NCBI RefSeq assembly: GCF_024741795.1
Contig: NZ_CP102950.1
Coordinates: 3,596,001 to 3,660,000 of the forward strand
Direction of reading: 5' to 3'
DNA: 64,000 nucleotides
Source of the DNA: Arthrobacter sp. CJ23
GTDB taxonomy: Bacteria; Actinomycetota; Actinomycetes; Actinomycetales; Micrococcaceae
A program made the translations under genes and the position numbers. Below are positions 44,659 to 54,004 of this stretch, piece after piece. Each line of letters opens with the position of its first letter. Positions within the stretch are counted from its first letter, which is position 1. The notes beneath the pieces were generated by a model. That model was not told where the DNA came from. It did not search any database and saw only the letters and a program-made list of their open reading frames with translations.

Positions 44659-45375
44659 CCCAAGGGCGGGGTCTCCGGATCGGCTGTGAGCCCCCGCCCG
44701 GCCGACCCTTTGTTGAAGGCGGCGCAACAGCACCACGAGCGTGAACACTCTGAGGTCATCATCGACGCGCTTCGACAAGACCGGGCTCGTGAAGTCCGCG
44801 ATCGTCCGGCGACCGAGACGACGACCGCATGAAACGCACCCAGATCGGCGAACCCGGTCGCGACAACTACTCCATGACAAGGCTTGGAAGATGACTGCAC
44901 GTAGAAGGCTTGCAACCCACAGGAACACCCGCTCGAAGTGCAGGCTCTCCTGCACCCGAACACCTGAGCGATTCTGAGCCGACATGCTCTGTTTCGAGTC
45001 CTCTGGATTTGTGGTGGCTGCCCCTGGGTCAGTGCCGACCGTGCTCACGGATGCCAGCAACTTTGAGGCATGGGATTCCAGCACAGCGTATCGATCTGGT
45101 GAGATGGTGAACGGTTCCTCGGTTGTTCTCGCAGCCAGCAAGGGACATTGGCACCGCAGCTTTGCAGTGCTCATCCTGCCCGAGGCATCCGCCGAGCTCG
45201 GCGCCCTCACCGTCGCCGAGCTCGGCGCCCTGGAAAACCTCGGCAACGGCCGCCACCTCTTCAGCGGCTCCGTGGTGATCAACCGCTCCGGCTCCTTCGG
45301 CTACACCGTCCGTGTCTTCCCGAAGCACCCGGCCCTGGCATCCAAAGCCGAACTCGGGCTAATCGCGAACGTCTA
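44659..45375. other. Junction region of gene fragments
   Basis: About 700 bases with no intact gene. At 44700-44828 a frame reads ...DPLLKAAQQHHEREHSEVII and ends in an ATGA overlap with a 21-codon frame (MKRTQIGEPGRDN...), which looks like the joint of two truncated operonic genes of unknown family. From 44984 the sequence is the chimeric fragment listed separately. The region marks the boundary between the sugar operon and the pilus locus. Confidence 0.4.
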
Positions 45376-45376
45376 A
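44984..45376 (+). pseudogene. Chimeric fragment ending in a glycogen-phosphorylase-like C-terminus
   Basis: A 130-codon frame. Its last part, NGRHLFSGSVVINRSG and SFGYTVRVFPKHPALASKAE followed by LGLIANV, matches the extreme C-terminus of alpha-glucan (glycogen) phosphorylases of the DUF3417 type. The upstream part (FEAWDSSTAYRSGEMVNGS) is unrelated and faintly resembles a carbohydrate-binding module. Not a functional enzyme. Its TAA overlaps the ATG of the sigma-pilin gene (TAATG), so translation of that gene may depend on this relic. Confidence 0.5.
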
Positions 45377-47934
45377 TGGGGCAGGCTTCAGAGGGCGGAT
45401 CGAATGGTGGGGACGCGTCGTTGGCCGTCGGGTCGCACAGCGACCCTCAAATCATGGCCCTGGTGCGCGGCGGAGACTCGTCCGTCTTCGATGTGCTCTT
45501 CCGGCGACATGTGGCAGCGGCCCAGTTTGTTGCCCGCGCCCAGACGGACAATATCAGTGACGCCGACGACGTCGTAGCCGAGGCGTTCGCCTCCATTTTC
45601 CAGGCCCTCACTGAGGGCAAGGGACCTGACCAGTTCTTCCGCTCCTATCTCCTGACTGCCGTGCGGCGAATCGCTTACGACCGGAACCGGAAGGCCAGAC
45701 GTACCCAGGCTGTGGGCGATGTCGAGGTCTTGGACACCGTTGCCGTCGACGCAGACAGTGTTCTTGAGGCCTTTGAGTCCAGCACCATGGCAAAGGCGTT
45801 CAAGTCCCTTCCGGAACGCTGGCAGGCCGTTCTCTGGCACATGGACATCGAAGGCCTGAAACCTGCCGCGGCCGCACCCTTCATCGGACTGACGCCGAAC
45901 GGGGTGTCCTCGCTGGTGATCCGGGCACGCGAGGGCCTCCGGCAGGCCTACTTGCAGAACCACATCAGCTTGTCGGATGACGATTCCTGTTTCGAGTATT
46001 CGAGCCAGCTCGGAAAATACGCCCGCGACGGCCTGAAACGCACATCGCACGAAAAGGTCAAAGCCCATCTGGAGGAGTGCCCGAAGTGCACGGCCTTGTT
46101 CGTGGAACTGAACGATGTCCAGGGAGGCATGAGGGCGGCTGTCTTCCCGCTGGTGGCCGGGGTGGTGTTCACACCTGCTGTTACCACCGGTTTCCTCCCC
46201 GGAGCGGGACTTTCGGGGACCTTCCTCCCTGCCGGGACAGAACCGGCCGACGCCGGGTTGCGCTCGGTCAGTGGCTTCTGGAAGATTGCCGTGGGCGCGT
46301 TGATCCTGGGAGGCTTCATAGTTGCGGGCGTCCTCACGTGGCTTGGACAGACCGATCCGGCGCCAATCGCTGGAGCCGATGTTCCTAGCAGTGCACCGTC
46401 AGCCCAACCGTCCGTGCTGGAACGTGCCCCGACGGCACCCCCGTCAAATCCGCCGACGCCGGACCCGCCTGCCATTGCGGTGCCGCAATCCCCGGCGCCC
46501 GCGCCAAGCGCTGCCGCAGCGGTTCCTGTGCCGCAGGAGACGGCCAGGGTGGCTGAATCCGGAACCGGCATCACGAAACCCGTTCCGCGGTCGGGTTCGT
46601 TGACTATCCATAAGTATGAGAAGCCGGTCATGCCGACGAGCCTGCCCAACAACGGAACGGCACTGACGCCGACTCGGCTAGCGGCTCTGACGCCCATGGC
46701 CGGAGTCACGTTCACGGTTCAGAAGGTCAACAACATTGACCTGGCGACCAACGCGGGCTGGACTGCCGCGGCCGCCTTGACGCCGGCCCAGGCTGCCACG
46801 CAGGCAGCCACCCCCGGCTCGGCCACCACCACCGACGCGACCGGAACGGCCACCCTCGCGGACCTTCCCCTGGGCCTGTACCTGGTGACGGAGACCGGCT
46901 ACCCCGCCGGCGTCACTCCCGCCACCCCGTTCCTGGTGACCCTGCCCATGACGGACCCCACCGGCGGGAACAGCTGGTTGTACGACGTGAACGTCTATCC
47001 CAAGAACGCCGTGACTACAGCCACGAAGACCGTCAATGATGCGTCGGTCGTCAAGCTCGGCGACAAGGTGCAGTGGAACATCACATCCGACATCCCGAAC
47101 GTCAACCCGATCGATGGGTACCGGATTGTCGACAAGCTCGACCCGAAGCTGACGTACACCAACCCGACCGTGGCGCTGTCCAACAACGCCGCGCTGACGC
47201 TGAACACGGACTACACCATCGTCTTCGACACGGCCACGAACACCCTCACGGTCGACTTCACCGCCTCCGGCCGGGCCATCCTGGCCACGGACCCCACCGC
47301 CAAAGTCCAGGTCACGGTGAACACCACCGTCAACACGGACGGCCACATCTCGAACACGGCTCTGGTCTACCCGAACGCGGCCAGCTTCAACATCACCCCC
47401 GGCCAGCCCAACGGCCCCGTGGTCACACCCCCGGTAAGCACCACCAAATGGGGCGACATCGTCCTGCACAAGCAGGACTCCCAGAGCTCCGCAGCCCTCG
47501 CGGGCGCCACGTTCTCGGTGTACGCGACCCAGGCCGATGCCTTGGCCGGCACCAACGCGATCAGCGTCGGAGGTGCCAGTTCCTGGACCACCGACGCCAG
47601 CGGCAAGCTGCTGATCTCGGGACTGCGTTACTCCAACTGGGCCAACGGGGCTGCAGTGAGCCCGGGCCAGCCCGGCTACCAGTCGTACTGGCTGGTCGAG
47701 ACCAAGGCCCCGGCCGGGTACGCGCTCCTCGCCCAGCCGGTCGAAACCACGGTCACCAGCAACGACCCCTCCGCTGTGACGGTGACGATCGACAACATCA
47801 AGCAGAACGCCGAATTCCAGCTGCCGCTCACCGGCATGCGAACCTGGGCCCTGCCCGCCGGCGGGATCCTCGTGCTGGCAGGCGCAGGCCTGTTCATGGT
47901 CACCGGCCGCCGGCAGCCCACCGAAGCACAATAG
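45376..47934 (+). CDS. ECF sigma factor - zinc anti-sigma - membrane - pilin fusion protein
   Basis: One uninterrupted frame of 852 codons. Residues 25-105 hold sigma region 2 (DPQIMALVRGGDSSVFDVLF; FFRSYLLTAVRRIAYDRNRK) and 138-192 region 4 (AFKSLPERWQAVLWHMDIEG; GLTPNGVSSLVIRAREGLRQ). A ZAS-type HLEECPKC follows (His231, Cys235, Cys238). A weak hydrophobic stretch is at 252-273 and a membrane segment at 303-323. A Pro/Ala/Ser linker (327-390) leads to a full SpaA/SpaH-type pilin (407-852) with YPK at 541-543, E-box YWLVETKAPAGY at 771-782 and LPLTG at 816-820 plus hydrophobic tail and GRR. Cytoplasmic sigma with extracellular pilin is expected if only one segment spans the membrane. ATG overlaps the preceding relic's stop; no clear ribosome site. 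Role as pilus-assembly sensor is inference. Confidence 0.85.
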   Translation: MGQASEGGSNGGDASLAVGSHSDPQIMALVRGGDSSVFDVLFRRHVAAAQFVARAQTDNISDADDVVAEAFASIFQALTEGKGPDQFFRSYLLTAVRRIAYDRNRKARRTQAVGDVEVLDTVAVDADSVLEAFESSTMAKAFKSLPERWQAVLWHMDIEGLKPAAAAPFIGLTPNGVSSLVIRAREGLRQAYLQNHISLSDDDSCFEYSSQLGKYARDGLKRTSHEKVKAHLEECPKCTALFVELNDVQGGMRAAVFPLVAGVVFTPAVTTGFLPGAGLSGTFLPAGTEPADAGLRSVSGFWKIAVGALILGGFIVAGVLTWLGQTDPAPIAGADVPSSAPSAQPSVLERAPTAPPSNPPTPDPPAIAVPQSPAPAPSAAAAVPVPQETARVAESGTGITKPVPRSGSLTIHKYEKPVMPTSLPNNGTALTPTRLAALTPMAGVTFTVQKVNNIDLATNAGWTAAAALTPAQAATQAATPGSATTTDATGTATLADLPLGLYLVTETGYPAGVTPATPFLVTLPMTDPTGGNSWLYDVNVYPKNAVTTATKTVNDASVVKLGDKVQWNITSDIPNVNPIDGYRIVDKLDPKLTYTNPTVALSNNAALTLNTDYTIVFDTATNTLTVDFTASGRAILATDPTAKVQVTVNTTVNTDGHISNTALVYPNAASFNITPGQPNGPVVTPPVSTTKWGDIVLHKQDSQSSAALAGATFSVYATQADALAGTNAISVGGASSWTTDASGKLLISGLRYSNWANGAAVSPGQPGYQSYWLVETKAPAGYALLAQPVETTVTSNDPSAVTVTIDNIKQNAEFQLPLTGMRTWALPAGGILVLAGAGLFMVTGRRQPTEAQ

Positions 47935-48320
47935 GCGGCTCCGGCACCCGGAACGTGACCCAGCCGAGGGCGGGCTCCCCGGAACCATCTGGCTTATTAG
48001 GCCTATTTTGAGTCCAGCACCGTTCTTGAGGCCTTTGAGTCCAGCACCGTGGCGAGGGCGTTCAAGTCTCTTCCGGGGCGCCGGCAGGCCGTTCTCTGGC
48101 ATGTGGACATCGAAGGCCTGAAGCCTGCCGCGGCCCCACAGTCTGCAGCGGAGGATCGTCACCAAAACGATTCCCACGACTTCCATCAGGCACATCCAGT
48201 CCCCGATCAAACTCCGTAAAAAGTAATCCCGTTTTTCGCGTCACGAATCGCCGGAAACGCGTACTTGATGGCTGGAAACCCCCTCCGTGCACGCTCCTGA
48301 AAGTGAAGCAAGAAAATCCC
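47935..48320. other. Intergenic region with duplicated sigma fragment
   Basis: 386 bases between the fusion gene and the tip-adhesin gene. It contains a 114-bp copy of sigma region 4 coding sequence (listed next); the remainder, about 185 bases ahead of the adhesin, presumably holds its promoter. No other gene is seen. Confidence 0.6.
48022..48135 (+). pseudogene. Duplicated 114-bp fragment of the sigma factor coding region
   Basis: Aligns without gaps to 45760-45873 of the fusion gene (codons for VLEAFESSTMAKAFKSLPER onward through the start of region 4), with about 12 mismatches. Flanking sequence is unrelated. It is a relic of a second sigma copy or of a recombination event at this locus. 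Confidence 0.8.
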
Positions 48321-51300
48321 ATGAAGCAGTCCCTTCCAGCCAAGCTGCTGGCGATTCTCCTCACTGCCACGATCGTCTCGTTGCTTGTCACGTTCCAGGC
48401 CGCAGTAAGCGCCCCTGCTGCGAATGCGGGCGGATCGGGCGGGAGTGTCACCTCGGCCGATGGGCGGATTACGGCGACGAAGACCGCCAGCACCTACAGC
48501 CTTCCGCTCGGCGGCGGGCAAGTCACCTACACCTACACGGTCACGAACAATACGACGGCGCCTGAATACTTCGTGAGCGCGACGGACGACAAGTGCGGTA
48601 CGCCGTCGAGCAGCCAGCTGAGCTATGACTTTATTCGGGCCAGGTACTACATCCTCGGCGGCGCCACCGTCACCTTCACGTGCGCGCAGACGGTCACGGT
48701 CACCACGACCAACACGGCGACCTTCACCTTCAACACCGACTGCAGCTGGTGGGCTGGCTGCGCGGGTGCCCAGTCTCAGGCCGCGGCCAAGGCGACGGTC
48801 GACGTCGCGACCCCTTCTAACTACACGTGCGATGCGATCTGGTACGGATCCGTCGCTGCGGGCGCCACCCCGGGCAGCATCGGAACCGTGCTCCCCACCC
48901 TGCAGAATGTAGCGACCCTAGCACCGCCGGGCCAGACCGGGTCGTACGCGAACACCTCTGCCATCGCCATGAACCCGAAAAACCCCGGGTACGTCTACTA
49001 CACCGCCCGATCCGGCAACACGTTCTTGTCGAATCTCTACCGGGTGAACCTGACCACGGGCGTCCAAGAGCAGGTGGCCTCGGGCATCTCCGCGTTCCAG
49101 ACCAATCGGCTGGGCTTTGATGCGTCCGGCACCCTGTGGACCTTCGCCAACGACGGTAACTTCTACTCGTGGACCCCTACGGGCGGCGGGATCTCGCCCG
49201 CTAAGACTGCGACGTTCCCTGACGGGAACGGTGGCACGATCAATCCCCCAACGCTGACATCGGGTGACATCGCCTTCGATGGCCTCGGCAATATGTGGGC
49301 GCTCGTCTCCACCGGTTCAGGCGGCAGCATCACCACCCCCACAACCTACCTCTACACAATCTCGGCCGCACAGCTGACCACGGCCACCCCGCAGGCGACC
49401 CTCGTCGGCGTCATGACTTCCCCCGGCGGGAACACGTTCTACAACGGCCTGGCCTTCGACACGAACGGCACCCTCTACGCGACGACGAACGACGGAACCA
49501 ACTCGAGCCTATACACCGTCAACAAGGACACAGGCACGACGACCCTGGTCACCACGTTCAGCAGCGCGACCCACGGCAACGCCGCCGACCTGACCTCCTG
49601 CGCCCTGCCCAAGCCGCAGCTTGTCGCGAGCAAGACCGTCTCGCCGCCCGGTCCCGTGACCGTGGGCACCACCTTGACCTACACGGTCGCCGTTAAGAAC
49701 ATCGGCAGCCTCTCCGCTACAGGTGCCACCTTCCAGGACTCGATGCCCGTTGGGTCGGCTTACGTGCCTGGCTCGACGAAGCTCAACGGCACTGCCGTGG
49801 CGGATTCGAGCGGTGCGATGCCGTACACCACCGCCCAACCGGTCAACGGCGGCACCACGAGCTTCAAGGGCGTCATCCCCGCCGGCGACACCGCAACCAT
49901 CACCTTCCAGGTGGTGGTCAACCCCTCAGCACTGGCCACCGGCGAGGTGCGCAACCAAGGCACAGTCGTCTTCGTCGGCTCGCCCCCGATCCTTACCGAT
50001 GATCCAACTAAGCCGGGCGGCACAGACCCGACGGTGACCCCGATTGCCACCCCCAACCTGGTGGCCTCCAAGAGTGTGGATCCGGCTGCCGGGACCTTGG
50101 TCAAGTCGGGCCAGGTCCTCACGTACACGCTGACCTTCGACAATACGACCGGTACGGCGCCGGCTGCCGTGAGTTACACCGACTGGCTTGGGGAAGCTTT
50201 GGATGCTTCGACCTTTGTGGCCGGCTCTATCACCACGACCACCACGGGCGGGACTCCGTTGCTTGGGACTCCTCTGGTAGTCACGAACAATTCGGGAGCG
50301 GTACCACCAAGCCTGAGCATCACTGGCACGGTGGCCGCAGGCGCGAAAAGCGTCGTGACTTACCAGGTGAAAGTCAACAACCCCGGCAGTCTTGGCAACG
50401 CCTCGGTCGAGAACTACCTGACGCCCTCGACCACCACAACACCGCCAACCACCTGCCCTGCCGGCAGCACCACCTGCACGGTCAACCCCGTGGGCGTGTG
50501 GACGCTGGGCAAGACCGCGTCCCCGGCGTCCGGAACCTCCATCAACCCCGCCGATCCAAGCGCGAGCAGGGTGATCACCTACTCCGTGACCGCCACCAAC
50601 TCCACCGCCAACCCCATCACCGGTGTTATCCTCACCGATGACCTGAGCCAGGTACTGAACAACGCCACGTTCACCGCCGGATCGGCGAAACTGACCATCA
50701 ATGGCGGCACACCCACCGCAGTTCCGGATCCCGGTGCCGACCTCAAGCTGGTCACCCCCTCATTCGTTCTCCCGGGCAACGGCACGGCCGTTTTGACCTA
50801 CACGGTGACTGTCAACTCCAATGCGTGGCTCGTCACCCTCAAGAACGGGGCCACCGGCAACGGGCTCATCCCCCCGGTCCGATGTGCCACGGGCAGCACG
50901 GCACCGCTTGACCCGGCGTGCTTCACCACGAACCCCACCACGGGCCACCTGTTCCTGCAAAAAGCAGGGCCAGGTCCAACCCAGGGTTCCACTGTCCCGC
51001 TGACCGGCTCGACCTTTGAGATCCACAACGATGCTGCCGGGCAAATGGGCACCACCGTGGTCGGGGTGAGCAGTGACGTGTCCGGATCCCCCGGACTGGT
51101 CGAGGTCAGAAACCTGCTTCCAGGAACGTACTGGCTGCTCGAGACCAAGGCCCCGAACGGCTACTCGCTCCTAGCGACTCCAGTGAAGTTCACCGTTGCG
51201 GCCAACGGCAGCATCACGTTGGACACGGCCACCGCCGGCACCTCAGTGACAGCAAACGGCCTGACCATCACCGTCCTGGACATGGCGGCCGTCAAGCTGC

Positions 51301-51434: not shown

Positions 51435-51477
51435 CGCAGCTCCGCGCACACCAATGGGGAAACAAGAAAGGAAAACG

Positions 51478-52947
51478 ATGAAATCATCGAAGGTGAGGCG
51501 CAGAATAGTAGCTTCCCTGGCCGCAATTGCCTCAGCAGCAATGCTTGCCCTCGGGGCAGGGGGCGCGCACGCGGCGAACACCGCGAACATCGATCCGTCC
51601 CAAACCGGTTCGCTGACCATCCACAAGTACCAGACGCCGGCCACGCCGACCAACCTGCCCAACAACGGAACAGCACTGACCCCGGCCCAGCTGGCGGGCC
51701 TGACGCCCATGGCCGGAGTCACGTTCACGGTTCAGAAGGTCAACAACATTGACCTGACAACCAACGCGGGCTGGACCGCCGCGGCCGCCCTGACACCGGC
51801 CCAGGCCGCCGCGCAGGCAGCCACTCCGGGCTCCACGGTCATCACCGACGCGGCCGGAACAGCCACCCTGGGGAACCTTCCCCTGGGCCTGTACCTCGTG
51901 ACGGAGACCGGCTACCCGGCCGGCGTCACTCCCGCATCCCCGTTCCTCGTCACGCTACCCATGACGGACCCCGTGAACGAGAGCAACTGGATCTACAACG
52001 TCAACGCCTACCCCAAGAACGCCGTGACCGGGGCCACGAAGACCGTCACGGACGCCCCGGCCATCAAGCTCGGCGACAACGTTCAGTGGACCATCACCGG
52101 CGACATCCCCAATGTCAACCCGATCGATGGATACCGGATCGTGGACCAGCTCGACCCGAAGCTGACGTACACGAACTCGACGGTGGCGCTCTCCAACGGC
52201 GCCACACTGACCCTGAACACGGACTACACCATCGTGTTCGACGCGGCCACGAACACCCTCACGGTCGACTTCACCGCCAGCGGCCGGGCCATCCTGGCTG
52301 CCGACCCGACAGCCAAGGTCCTGGTGACGGTGAACACCACCGTGAACACGGTCGGCCAGATCGCGAACACGGCCTTCGTCTACTCGAACGCGGCCAGCTT
52401 CACCATCACCCCGGGCCAGCCCGGCGGACCGGTCGTCACACCCCCGGTGATTACCAAATGGGGCGACATCGTCCTGCACAAGCAGGACTCCCAGAGCTCC
52501 GCGGCCCTCGCGGGCGCCACGTTCTCGGTGTACCCGACCCAGGTCGATGCCTTGGCCGGCACCAACGCCATCACCATCGCCGGTGTCAGCTCCTGGACCA
52601 CCGATGCCACCGGCAACCTCGTGATCTCCGGACTGCGCTACTCCAACTGGGCCAACGGAGCAGCTGTAAGCCCGGGCCAGCCCGGCTACCAGTCCTACTG
52701 GCTGGTGGAGACCAAGGCTCCGGCCGGCTACGAGCTGCTCGCCCAGCCGGTTGAAACGACGGTCACCAGCGCTGATCCGTCGGTCGTCACGGTGACGATC
52801 GACAACGTCCCGCACAACGCCGGATTCCAGTTGCCGCTCACCGGTGGCGTGGGAACCTGGGCCCTGACCGCCGGCGGCGTCCTCGTCTTGGCAGGCGCCG
52901 GTCTCTTCATGGTCACCGGCCGACGGAGCCGCAACGAGGCAAAGTAG
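51478..52947 (+). CDS. Major pilin (SpaH/EbpB family), LPLTG-anchored
   Basis: 489 residues from ATG 51478 with GAAAGGA upstream. Signal peptide KVRRRIVASLAAIASAAMLA to GAHAA. The mature part has three Ig-like/SpaA domains with YPK (178-180), whose Lys should form the intermolecular isopeptide bond, E-box YWLVETKAPAGY and LPLTG (452-456) followed by a hydrophobic stretch and GRRSRNEAK. From GSLTIHKY to the end it is very similar to the pilin half of the fusion gene, differing mainly near both ends. Probably the shaft subunit. Confidence 0.92.
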   Translation: MKSSKVRRRIVASLAAIASAAMLALGAGGAHAANTANIDPSQTGSLTIHKYQTPATPTNLPNNGTALTPAQLAGLTPMAGVTFTVQKVNNIDLTTNAGWTAAAALTPAQAAAQAATPGSTVITDAAGTATLGNLPLGLYLVTETGYPAGVTPASPFLVTLPMTDPVNESNWIYNVNAYPKNAVTGATKTVTDAPAIKLGDNVQWTITGDIPNVNPIDGYRIVDQLDPKLTYTNSTVALSNGATLTLNTDYTIVFDAATNTLTVDFTASGRAILAADPTAKVLVTVNTTVNTVGQIANTAFVYSNAASFTITPGQPGGPVVTPPVITKWGDIVLHKQDSQSSAALAGATFSVYPTQVDALAGTNAITIAGVSSWTTDATGNLVISGLRYSNWANGAAVSPGQPGYQSYWLVETKAPAGYELLAQPVETTVTSADPSVVTVTIDNVPHNAGFQLPLTGGVGTWALTAGGVLVLAGAGLFMVTGRRSRNEAK

Positions 52948-52981: not shown

Positions 52982-53017
52982 GTATGGGGCATCCACCACT
53001 TGGTGGATGCCCCATAC
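52982..53017 (+). terminator. Perfect 16-bp hairpin between pilin and sortase genes
   Basis: GTATGGGGCATCCACC (52982-52997) pairs exactly with 53002-53017 around ACTT. There is no T-run after it, so it may attenuate rather than stop transcription, or protect the pilin mRNA, giving much pilin and little sortase. A smaller hairpin (CCTGCA/TGCAGG) lies directly before it. Confidence 0.65.
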
Positions 53018-53047: not shown

Positions 53048-54004
53048 ATGACCCAGACCCTCGAAGAACTCATGGAGGGTTCCGAACCCGGCCCGGGCTC
53101 CCCTCGGCGCCGCAGAACCGGCAGAACGGCGACCGGACGCAAGGGCATCCGATTCGGTCTTGCTGACCGGAGGCTCGTAACGATGATGGTGATCGCAGCC
53201 GTCGGGCTGGGCCTGGTCCTCTACCCACAGGCAGCGGACTGGTTCAGTTCGATCTCCCACAACACCCAGCTTTCCGGCTACGCGCAGGAAGTGGAACAGC
53301 TGGAACCCTCGGCCCGGACGAAAGTGCTGGACCGGGCACGCGAATACAACTCCCGCATCCCGCCAGGTCAGCTGCGGGACCCCTACTCCGCCGCTGCCCC
53401 CACCCCGGCCATGAACGGGCCGCTGGAGGACTACCAAAGCCAATTGAACGTGGCCAACGACGAGGTGATCGGCAGATTCCGCTACCCCTCGCTGAACATC
53501 GATCTACCCATCTTCCACGGAACCAGCGACGACGTCCTGGCCAAAGGAGTCGGCCACCTCTACGGCTCCTCCCTTCCCGTCGGCGGCCCCGGTACACACA
53601 GCGTCCTGACATCCCACTCGGGAATCCCGAACGCGGAACTCTTCAACCCCCTCCACAACGCGAAAACGGGTGACATCTTCTCCACCGAAGTCATGGACCA
53701 CACCTTCCTGTACCAGGTGAACAAGATCGAGGTGGTCAAACCGGACGACATTTCCTCCCTCAAGATCACCGCAGCCGAGGACTCCATCACACTGGTCACG
53801 TGCACCCCCATCGGAGTGAACTCGCACCGGCTCCTCGTCCACGCCTCGCGGATCGCGGATCTTCCCAAAGACGCCCCGGAGCAGAAAACCCTGGCAGGAC
53901 GCCAAACCAACACCGGATTCCCGTTCTGGGCCGTCTACTTCATCGGAGGCCTGCTGGCCTTCTACCTGGCATCCATACTCCGGAACCGCCGACCCAAGCG
54001 ATGA
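53048..54004 (+). CDS. Class C (pilus-polymerising) sortase
   Basis: 318 residues from ATG 53048 with AAGAGG upstream. N-terminal membrane segment (MMVIAAVGLGLVLYPQAADW), a lid-like LRDPYSAAAP, then catalytic His in GTHSVLTSHSG, Cys in ITLVTCTPIGVN and Arg in NSHRLLVHASRI. A second membrane segment near the C-terminus (FWAVYFIGGLLAFYLASIL) is typical of class C. It should polymerise the 51478 pilin through YPK and LPLTG and could also act on the fusion protein's pilin. Confidence 0.93.
   Translation: MTQTLEELMEGSEPGPGSPRRRRTGRTATGRKGIRFGLADRRLVTMMVIAAVGLGLVLYPQAADWFSSISHNTQLSGYAQEVEQLEPSARTKVLDRAREYNSRIPPGQLRDPYSAAAPTPAMNGPLEDYQSQLNVANDEVIGRFRYPSLNIDLPIFHGTSDDVLAKGVGHLYGSSLPVGGPGTHSVLTSHSGIPNAELFNPLHNAKTGDIFSTEVMDHTFLYQVNKIEVVKPDDISSLKITAAEDSITLVTCTPIGVNSHRLLVHASRIADLPKDAPEQKTLAGRQTNTGFPFWAVYFIGGLLAFYLASILRNRRPKR

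What the first reader, a model, noticed from the sequence alone, without database searches (positions are those of the whole stretch)
45376..47934. ECF sigma factor, anti-sigma motif, membrane segment and complete sortase-type pilin in one protein
Seen: one 852-codon frame carries sigma regions 2 and 4, an HxxxCxxC zinc anti-sigma motif, a membrane segment at 303-323, a Pro-rich linker and a pilin with YPK, E-box and LPLTG. Known: ECF proteins with fused ZAS and membrane regions exist, and class C sortases use YPK and LPxTG. Inference: the pilin domain may be displayed outside and be captured by the sortase (gene at 53048), and capture or pulling may free the sigma domain to drive pilus genes, making a built-in assembly or adhesion sensor. 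I know of no described example but could not search. Caveat: if the weak hydrophobic stretch at 252-273 also spans the membrane, the pilin would face inward.
Basis: partly seen in the sequence, partly recalled or inferred. Interest (0 to 1): 0.92.

Follow-up and report, generated by a model that had tools for sequence, protein, structure and literature searches.

The report
Sigma factor fused to pilus subunit
In some Arthrobacter soil bacteria, a gene-switching protein (a sigma factor) is built in one piece with a copy of the pilus subunit whose genes it probably switches on, so the cell may sense its own pili with a single protein.

Summary
One intact 852-aa frame (45376-47934) encodes an ECF sigma factor, zinc anti-sigma domain, membrane helix, Pro-rich linker and full SpaH/EbpB-type pilin. 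It is no artefact: 15 other protein clusters and 8 of 150 genus genomes (overlapping sets) carry it. In all 9 fused loci examined, surface gene, separate pilin and sortase follow. Both halves are under purifying selection. New here: a promoter-like motif, CGWCACGA-N15-YACT, lies between fusion and operon in 9 of 9 loci. It occurs once in the 4.63-Mb genome, at 48239-48265, and its count follows the sigma family across 150 genomes. The adjacent pilus operon is thus the likely target. I favour a tethered pilin stub reporting pilus or pilin status. Topology is likely but not certain. Tethered ECF factors are known (ECF52/53); a pilin sensor is a new variant.

The parts
45376..47934 (+). Fused gene: ECF sigma - zinc anti-sigma (ZAS) - membrane helix - Pro-rich linker - complete SpaH/EbpB-type pilin with sorting signal, 852 aa
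45490..45948 (+). ECF sigma domain (residues 39-191, TIGR02937)
   Evidence: omega 0.095 for residues 20-196
45988..46089 (+). zf-HC2 / ZAS anti-sigma domain (residues 205-238)
   Evidence: HLEECPKC motif
46285..46347 (+). Membrane helix (residues 304-324)
46351..46587 (+). Pro-rich linker (residues 326-404)
   Evidence: omega 0.52
46591..47805 (+). Mature pilin body, three Pfam domains (residues 406-810); 46594-47937 is 85.9% identical to the separate pilin gene over 1348 aligned bases
46996..47007 (+). Pilin motif YPKN (residues 541-544); K543 is the predicted acceptor lysine
47821..47907 (+). Sorting signal: LPLTG (816-820) and hydrophobic tail (824-844); relaxed in the fused copies
48022..48139 (+). 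118-bp remnant of the sigma region, 90.7% identical to 45760-45877, between the fused gene and the pilus operon
48239..48265 (+). Promoter-like motif CGTCACGA-N15-TACT, predicted target of the fused sigma; only exact match in the genome
48303..51434 (+). Large surface protein with DUF7927, DUF11 and SpaA domains, probable pilus adhesin (ATG alternative at 48321)
51454..52947 (+). Separate SpaH/EbpB major pilin with its own N-terminal hydrophobic segment and LPLTGG
52982..53017 (+). Perfect 16-bp hairpin between pilin and sortase genes
53048..54004 (+). Class C (pilus) sortase

Best explanation
This is a one-protein, self-referential switch for a sortase-assembled pilus. The ECF sigma is held at the membrane and silenced in cis by its zinc anti-sigma domain (inferred from the architecture). 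When freed, most likely by regulated proteolysis as proposed for ECF52/53, it starts transcription at the motif 48239-48265 and drives the surface protein - pilin - class C sortase operon (supported by motif conservation, not by experiment). The ectodomain is a copy of the major pilin made by that operon. It reads pilus or pilin status outside the cell, most likely because its invariant YPK lysine (K543) can accept a pilin chain from the sortase, or because pilins dock on it. Its own LPxTG cleavage is not needed. Shown: architecture, conservation, one clade for 16 of 17 fused pilins, synteny, motif, selective decay of the sorting signal. Inferred: topology in vivo, release step, sign of the signal, lysine capture.
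For: Fusion in 15 further clusters at 75-81% identity and in 8 of 150 genus genomes. 16 of 17 fused pilin rows form one clade, 99/97. Purifying selection on sigma (omega 0.095) and pilin domains (0.14-0.18; nine genomes), like the separate pilin (0.10-0.18; seven genomes). Fusion, surface gene, pilin and sortase are in the same order and strand in 9 of 9 fused loci. A strict motif lies between fusion and operon in 9 of 9. One exact motif in 4.63 Mb, at the operon. 36 genomes with a close sigma relative average 6.0 motifs against 0.48 in 114 others (control pattern 1.9 vs 1.4; p=7e-19). In the non-fused family the motif also precedes surface-protein genes. The fused and the separate pilin are the only two pilinD1 genes found in the genome. 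K543 and YPKN are invariant in 21 fused and 19 separate rows. Sorting signal relaxed only in the fused copy: nonsynonymous:synonymous variants 31:29 vs 4:31, p=7e-5; body 234:382 vs 160:298, p=0.31. Outward topology: two cysteines are invariant in the ectodomain of the non-fused relatives, as fits an oxidising outside.
Against: No expression, protease or pilus data exist here. The hydrophobic stretch near 252-274 passes the usual Kyte-Doolittle limit; if it spans, the pilin would face inward. This made me lower the confidence from 0.55 to 0.5. The motif was found in these same loci, so only the own-genome and 150-genome counts are partly independent. The own-genome exact count (1) is below the control pattern's 4, so position rather than number is the evidence. 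In the window the sigma gene lacks the conserved box seen before its start in 21 of 21 other loci, so autoregulation may be gone in this strain. The sigma tree does not resolve whether the window's fusion is one with the rest. LPxTG is still intact in 7 of 9 genomes. The variant counts are not corrected for relatedness.
Confidence: 0.5

Rival explanations
1. One reading: sortase cleaves the fused protein at its own LPLTG, and this capture or pulling on it frees the sigma factor.
For: LPxTG and a hydrophobic, positively charged tail are still recognisable in 7 of 9 genomes (more rows); class C sortase next door.
Against: The signal is relaxed and broken in 2 of 9 genomes (LPFAG, LATTG), and one of the two glycines after LPxT is lost in all nine, while the separate pilin keeps LPLTGG in nine of nine.
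Confidence: 0.12
2. Non-covalent pilin-pool sensor: free or unassembled pilin binds the pilin stub and sets the activity of the tethered sigma, as pilin does for the kinase PilS in type IV pili.
For: The whole pilin body is conserved as in a real pilin, and the sorting signal is relaxed. PilS precedent: passages of PMC6058289.
Against: No reason is then seen for the invariant YPKN acceptor motif, except shared ancestry or folding.
Confidence: 0.2
3. Mainly structural: the fused protein is a membrane-anchored base pilin that ends pilus growth and holds the fibre; the sigma half is shed in maturation and signals little.
For: Only two pilinD1 genes were found in the genome, so no further base pilin of that kind; YPK kept and LPxTG decaying fits a chain terminator.
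Against: The sigma half is the most constrained part (omega 0.095), and the motif implies a working sigma.
Confidence: 0.08
4. The second hydrophobic stretch spans the membrane and the pilin half lies in the cytoplasm, where it only sequesters or regulates the sigma factor.
For: Kyte-Doolittle mean 1.82 near residues 256-274, and 1.66-2.08 in 13 other fused proteins.
Against: The stretch holds two prolines, scores poorly for insertion, and is shared with non-fused relatives whose ectodomain keeps two invariant cysteines; a cytoplasmic pilin would have no reason to keep YPKN and E-box residues.
Confidence: 0.07
5. Accident: a recombination product of sigma and pilin genes without function, or an assembly error.
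For: A 118-bp sigma fragment lies just downstream, and the fused pilin is 86% identical to the neighbour at DNA level, so recombination probably made it.
Against: Found in many species and metagenomes, mostly as one clade, under purifying selection.
Confidence: 0.03

Closest known systems
ECF52 / ECF53 sigma factors (SCO4117 of Streptomyces coelicolor)
   Same: ECF sigma, zinc-finger anti-sigma domain, one to two membrane helices, Pro-rich stretch and an outside sensor domain in one actinobacterial protein; regulated proteolysis proposed (passages of PMC5826349, PMC8999054, PMC10766802).
   Different: The sensor domains named in those passages are carbohydrate-binding or glycosyl hydrolase domains. 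Here it is a full sortase-type pilin, and the next genes are the matching pilus operon. ECF group number not tested.
SpaH/EbpB family LPXTG-anchored major pilin (NF033902; SpaA, SpaD, FimP structures)
   Same: Three-domain pilin, YPK motif, E-box glutamates, LPxTG-type tail.
   Different: No N-terminal signal peptide; a sigma factor, anti-sigma domain and membrane helix take its place; sorting signal relaxed.
PilS-PilR pilin sensing (type IV pili, Pseudomonas aeruginosa)
   Same: A pilus system whose subunit level feeds back on its own transcription (passages of PMC6058289).
   Different: There a kinase senses separate pilin in the membrane; here the sensor carries a pilin copy and is itself the sigma factor.
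RsgI anti-sigma factors of Clostridium thermocellum
   Same: Sensor outside, membrane helix cut by RseP, control of cellulosome genes (abstract start of PMC12203970 in the listing; rest recalled).
   Different: Anti-sigma and sigma are separate proteins, and the sensors bind polysaccharides (recalled).

Membership tests
ECF sigma factors | Regions 2 and 4 of sigma-70 without the rest | tested here: met
   TIGR02937 at 39-191, 47.9 bits vs cut-off 42.9; Sigma70_r2 over cut-off
ECF52/ECF53-type tethered sigma | Sigma, zinc-finger anti-sigma, membrane helix and Pro-rich extension in one chain | tested here: met
   zf-HC2 only just above cut-off
ECF52/ECF53-type tethered sigma | Carbohydrate-binding or hydrolase sensor domain | tested here: not met
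   Pfam finds pilin domains in the ectodomain
ECF52/ECF53-type tethered sigma | Membership by the ECF group models | not testable with these tools
   No ECF-group HMM library was on hand
SpaH/EbpB major pilin (NF033902) | Full-length profile match over cut-off | tested here: met
   367.8 bits vs 95, profile positions 26-539 of 540
SpaH/EbpB major pilin (NF033902) | N-terminal signal peptide for export | tested here: not met
   No hydrophobic N-terminal segment; replaced by sigma-ZAS-membrane helix. No dedicated signal-peptide program was run.
SpaH/EbpB major pilin (NF033902) | YPK acceptor lysine | tested here: met
   21 of 21 fused rows, some of them the same organism
SpaH/EbpB major pilin (NF033902) | Intact LPxTG sorting signal | tested here: inconclusive
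   Intact in the window and in 7 of 9 genomes in all, broken in 2 of 9
Sortase-assembled pilus locus | Class C sortase next to the pilin gene | tested here: met
   Window: NF033745 241 bits vs 160. The other 8 fused loci: relatives of that sortase by tblastn, 79-87% identical; class not retested
Sortase-assembled pilus locus | Covalent polymer on the cell surface | not testable with these tools
   Needs microscopy or mass spectrometry

The most novel reading that the evidence does not exclude
The fused protein is a dead-end base pilin: the sortase transfers the finished pilus onto its lysine K543, covalently joining an extracellular fibre to a membrane-tethered sigma factor. Completion of the pilus, or pull on it after adhesion, exposes the protein to proteolysis and releases the sigma factor, so the fibre controls its own genes with no partner protein.
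Probability: 0.2. Interest if true: 0.93.

Novelty: new variant of a known kind. Interest (0 to 1): 0.76.

Why it matters
How Gram-positive cells sense the state of their sortase-built pili is, as far as I recall, largely open. Here one protein carries the switch and a copy of the thing it switches on, with a predicted promoter, so the question becomes directly testable by reporter and point-mutant assays. It also suggests that the sensor domain of tethered ECF factors can be replaced by recombination with the regulated gene itself. Automatic annotation hides the architecture: of nine fusions with an NCBI name, eight are named only as pilin and one only as sigma factor.

Tried and rejected
Assembly error or frameshift: rejected. 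Inverted topology through the stretch near 252-274: thought unlikely (prolines, insertion energy of my own simplified scale) but not excluded. Sequence homology of the non-fused ectodomain to the DUF7507 repeats of the neighbour genes: not found by HMMER or hhalign. At fold level the non-fused model's best Foldseek match by E-value is the DUF11/CLIPPER domain 9IFR (PMC12617251 passages), so 'the sensor mirrors the target' is only a fold-level hint outside the fused clade. Other close members of this sigma family in the own genome: none seen (four matches: the gene, its remnant, and two too weak to be listed; no tblastn hit in the eight other sigma loci fetched). Own-promoter test with the motif upstream of the sigma gene: shuffle p below 0.05 in 6 of 22 loci only; a shorter CACACT or AACACT box 6-8 nt before the start is seen by eye in 21 of 21 other loci, not in the window. 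The tree of the sigma part does not show one origin for all fusions. Rows dropped: six separate pilins without the start pattern; P0013 and P0017 (incomplete) left out of A3 and of the pilin tree. Two separate pilins were missed and added. Literature: searches listed no sigma-pilin fusion that I could recognise from titles and abstract starts; the library lacks most subscription papers.

Full report
OBSERVATION. The frame 45376-47934 encodes 852 residues without a stop. Pfam and NCBIfam place an ECF sigma (TIGR02937, 39-191), a zinc anti-sigma domain (zf-HC2, 205-238) and a complete SpaH/EbpB major pilin (NF033902, 1e-109) in it. A strong membrane helix lies at 304-324, and the only other one listed by my simplified insertion scale is the sorting tail at 824-844. 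The predicted model (mean pLDDT 63.7; low between domains) shows a helix at 301-324 and beta strands from 406 to 807; the best solved matches are FimP, SpaD and SpaA (by sequence).

NOT AN ARTEFACT. The genome is one 4.63-Mb contig, 100% complete. A protein search returned 2102 relatives among the 7988 candidates scored, of which the best 120 were listed; 15 clusters besides the window's own are the same fusion at 75-81% identity, two of them incomplete (P0013, P0017), from Arthrobacter where an organism is named. In 150 genomes of the genus, 129 have some match to the first 275 residues. Among the listed matches eight genomes have an open frame long enough for the fusion (876-943 aa), and all seven besides the window carry the pilin. 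A ninth fused locus is from A. alkaliphilus (L010).

ORIGIN. The mature pilin parts of the fused gene and of the separate pilin gene are 85.9% identical over 1348 aligned bases; the signal-peptide part is what differs. A pilin tree puts 16 of 17 fused rows in one clade (99/97), with the window's row unresolved beside it (six separate pilins were dropped because a start pattern did not match). The sigma tree groups 13 of 16 fused rows (100/99) and leaves the others unresolved, so one origin is likely but not shown. Non-fused orthologues with a beta-domain of about 120 residues instead of the pilin sit at the same place. In several of them and in fused loci the same two genes lie upstream (an acyltransferase-like and a GNAT-like one) and a short-chain-dehydrogenase-like gene downstream; these names are my reading of the sequences, no profile was run. 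In NtRootA1 the pilus operon lies divergently beside a non-fused sigma gene. A 118-bp piece of the sigma region lies between fusion and operon in the window, probably a scar of a rearrangement; it was not found in L009-L011.

SELECTION. In nine genomes the median pairwise dN/dS is 0.095 for sigma, 0.17 for the anti-sigma domain, 0.14-0.18 for the three pilin domains, 0.52 for the linker and 0.37 for the sorting signal; the separate pilin of seven of these genomes has 0.10-0.18 and 0.04. Counting variants in all nine, the pilin body is constrained alike in the fused and the separate gene (nonsynonymous:synonymous 234:382 vs 160:298, p=0.31), but the sorting signal is relaxed in the fused gene (31:29 vs 4:31, p=7e-5; not corrected for relatedness). 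Two genomes have a broken motif (LPFAG, LATTG), and all nine lost one of the two glycines that follow LPxT in the separate pilin. One further fused row, P0011, keeps both. YPKN and two E-box glutamates are invariant in 21 fused and 19 separate rows; some of the 21 are the same organism.

PROMOTER. Aligning intergenic DNA of fused loci showed a conserved block; a fuzzy search found it before the surface gene that follows the sigma gene in fused loci and in L012-L015 and L019. The strict form, CGWCACGA-N15-YACT, occurs 26 times in 1.615 Mb (window plus 80 loci): 24 in Arthrobacter and Paenarthrobacter loci and the window, 2 inside genes of other genera. It stands between fusion and operon in 9 of 9 fused loci, and before the following surface-type gene in 8 of 13 non-fused loci fetched; three more have a surface-type gene without a strict motif and two have none there. 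Surface type was judged from the ends of the proteins; Pfam was run on seven such genes and found DUF7507, DUF7933, DUF7927 or DUF11 in all seven. The own genome has one exact match, at 48239-48265; the control pattern has four, so place, not number, is the evidence. Across 150 genomes, the 36 with a close sigma relative (E below 1e-60, limit chosen after seeing the table) average 6.0 matches against 0.48 in the 114 others; two or more matches in 33 of 36 against 11 of 114; the control pattern averages 1.9 and 1.4. In three loci (L021, L023, L024) the motif lies just before the sigma gene itself. In 21 of 21 other loci a CACACT or AACACT box lies 6-8 nt before the sigma start, judged by eye; the window lacks it.

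MECHANISM. I infer: sigma tethered and silent, pilin half outside, release by proteolysis as proposed for ECF52/53 (passages of PMC8999054 and PMC5826349), transcription of the surface-pilin-sortase operon. The separate pilin and the fused copy are the only pilinD1 genes found in the genome, and this sortase is one of two. Because the acceptor lysine is kept while the sorting signal decays, the fused pilin is more likely an acceptor or a docking stub than a normal polymer subunit. Whether the signal is finished pili, free pilin or pull is open.

KNOWN. Tethered ECF factors with sensor domains are known; the passages seen name carbohydrate-binding or hydrolase domains. Of seven distant relatives scanned here, three carry DUF11 above cut-off and one below it. 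None of six literature searches listed a pilin as the sensor (listings and abstract starts).

Noticed in passing
window 44984-45376: A 130-aa frame ends at the start of the fused gene and replaces the upstream region seen in relatives; it has no Pfam match. It recalls the end of a glucan phosphorylase to me, untested. The conserved box before the sigma start is missing here.
   Followed up: partly
window 52982-53017: Perfect 16-bp RNA hairpin between pilin and sortase genes, z-score -5.2 for the surrounding 106 nt; perhaps an attenuator that lowers sortase expression.
   Followed up: partly
L013 9272-9910, L014 9186-9890, L019 340-888, L010 9425-9952 (minus strand): A small gene divergent from the sigma gene, in several loci with the motif close before its start; weak DUF7507 matches below cut-off. 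Unknown, perhaps in the same regulon.
   Followed up: partly
P0043 and other non-fused orthologues, last ~120 residues: The ectodomain is predicted with high confidence as a beta-rich domain; the model's best solved match is the DUF11/CLIPPER adhesin domain 9IFR, while the neighbour surface genes scanned consist of DUF7507/DUF11-type repeats. No sequence homology was found.
   Followed up: partly
L027 9042-13616, L031 10025-13918, L035 9968-15229, L064 10001-14674: Oerskovia, Cellulomonas and Cellulosimicrobium relatives are 1297-1753 aa, with huge ectodomains; DUF11 above cut-off in the first three and below it in L064.
   Followed up: no
L009 12698-12730, L010, L011 (first motif copy): In the fused relatives the distal motif copy overlaps a short palindrome (CCCACT...AGTGGG), absent from the single copy left in the window.
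   Followed up: no
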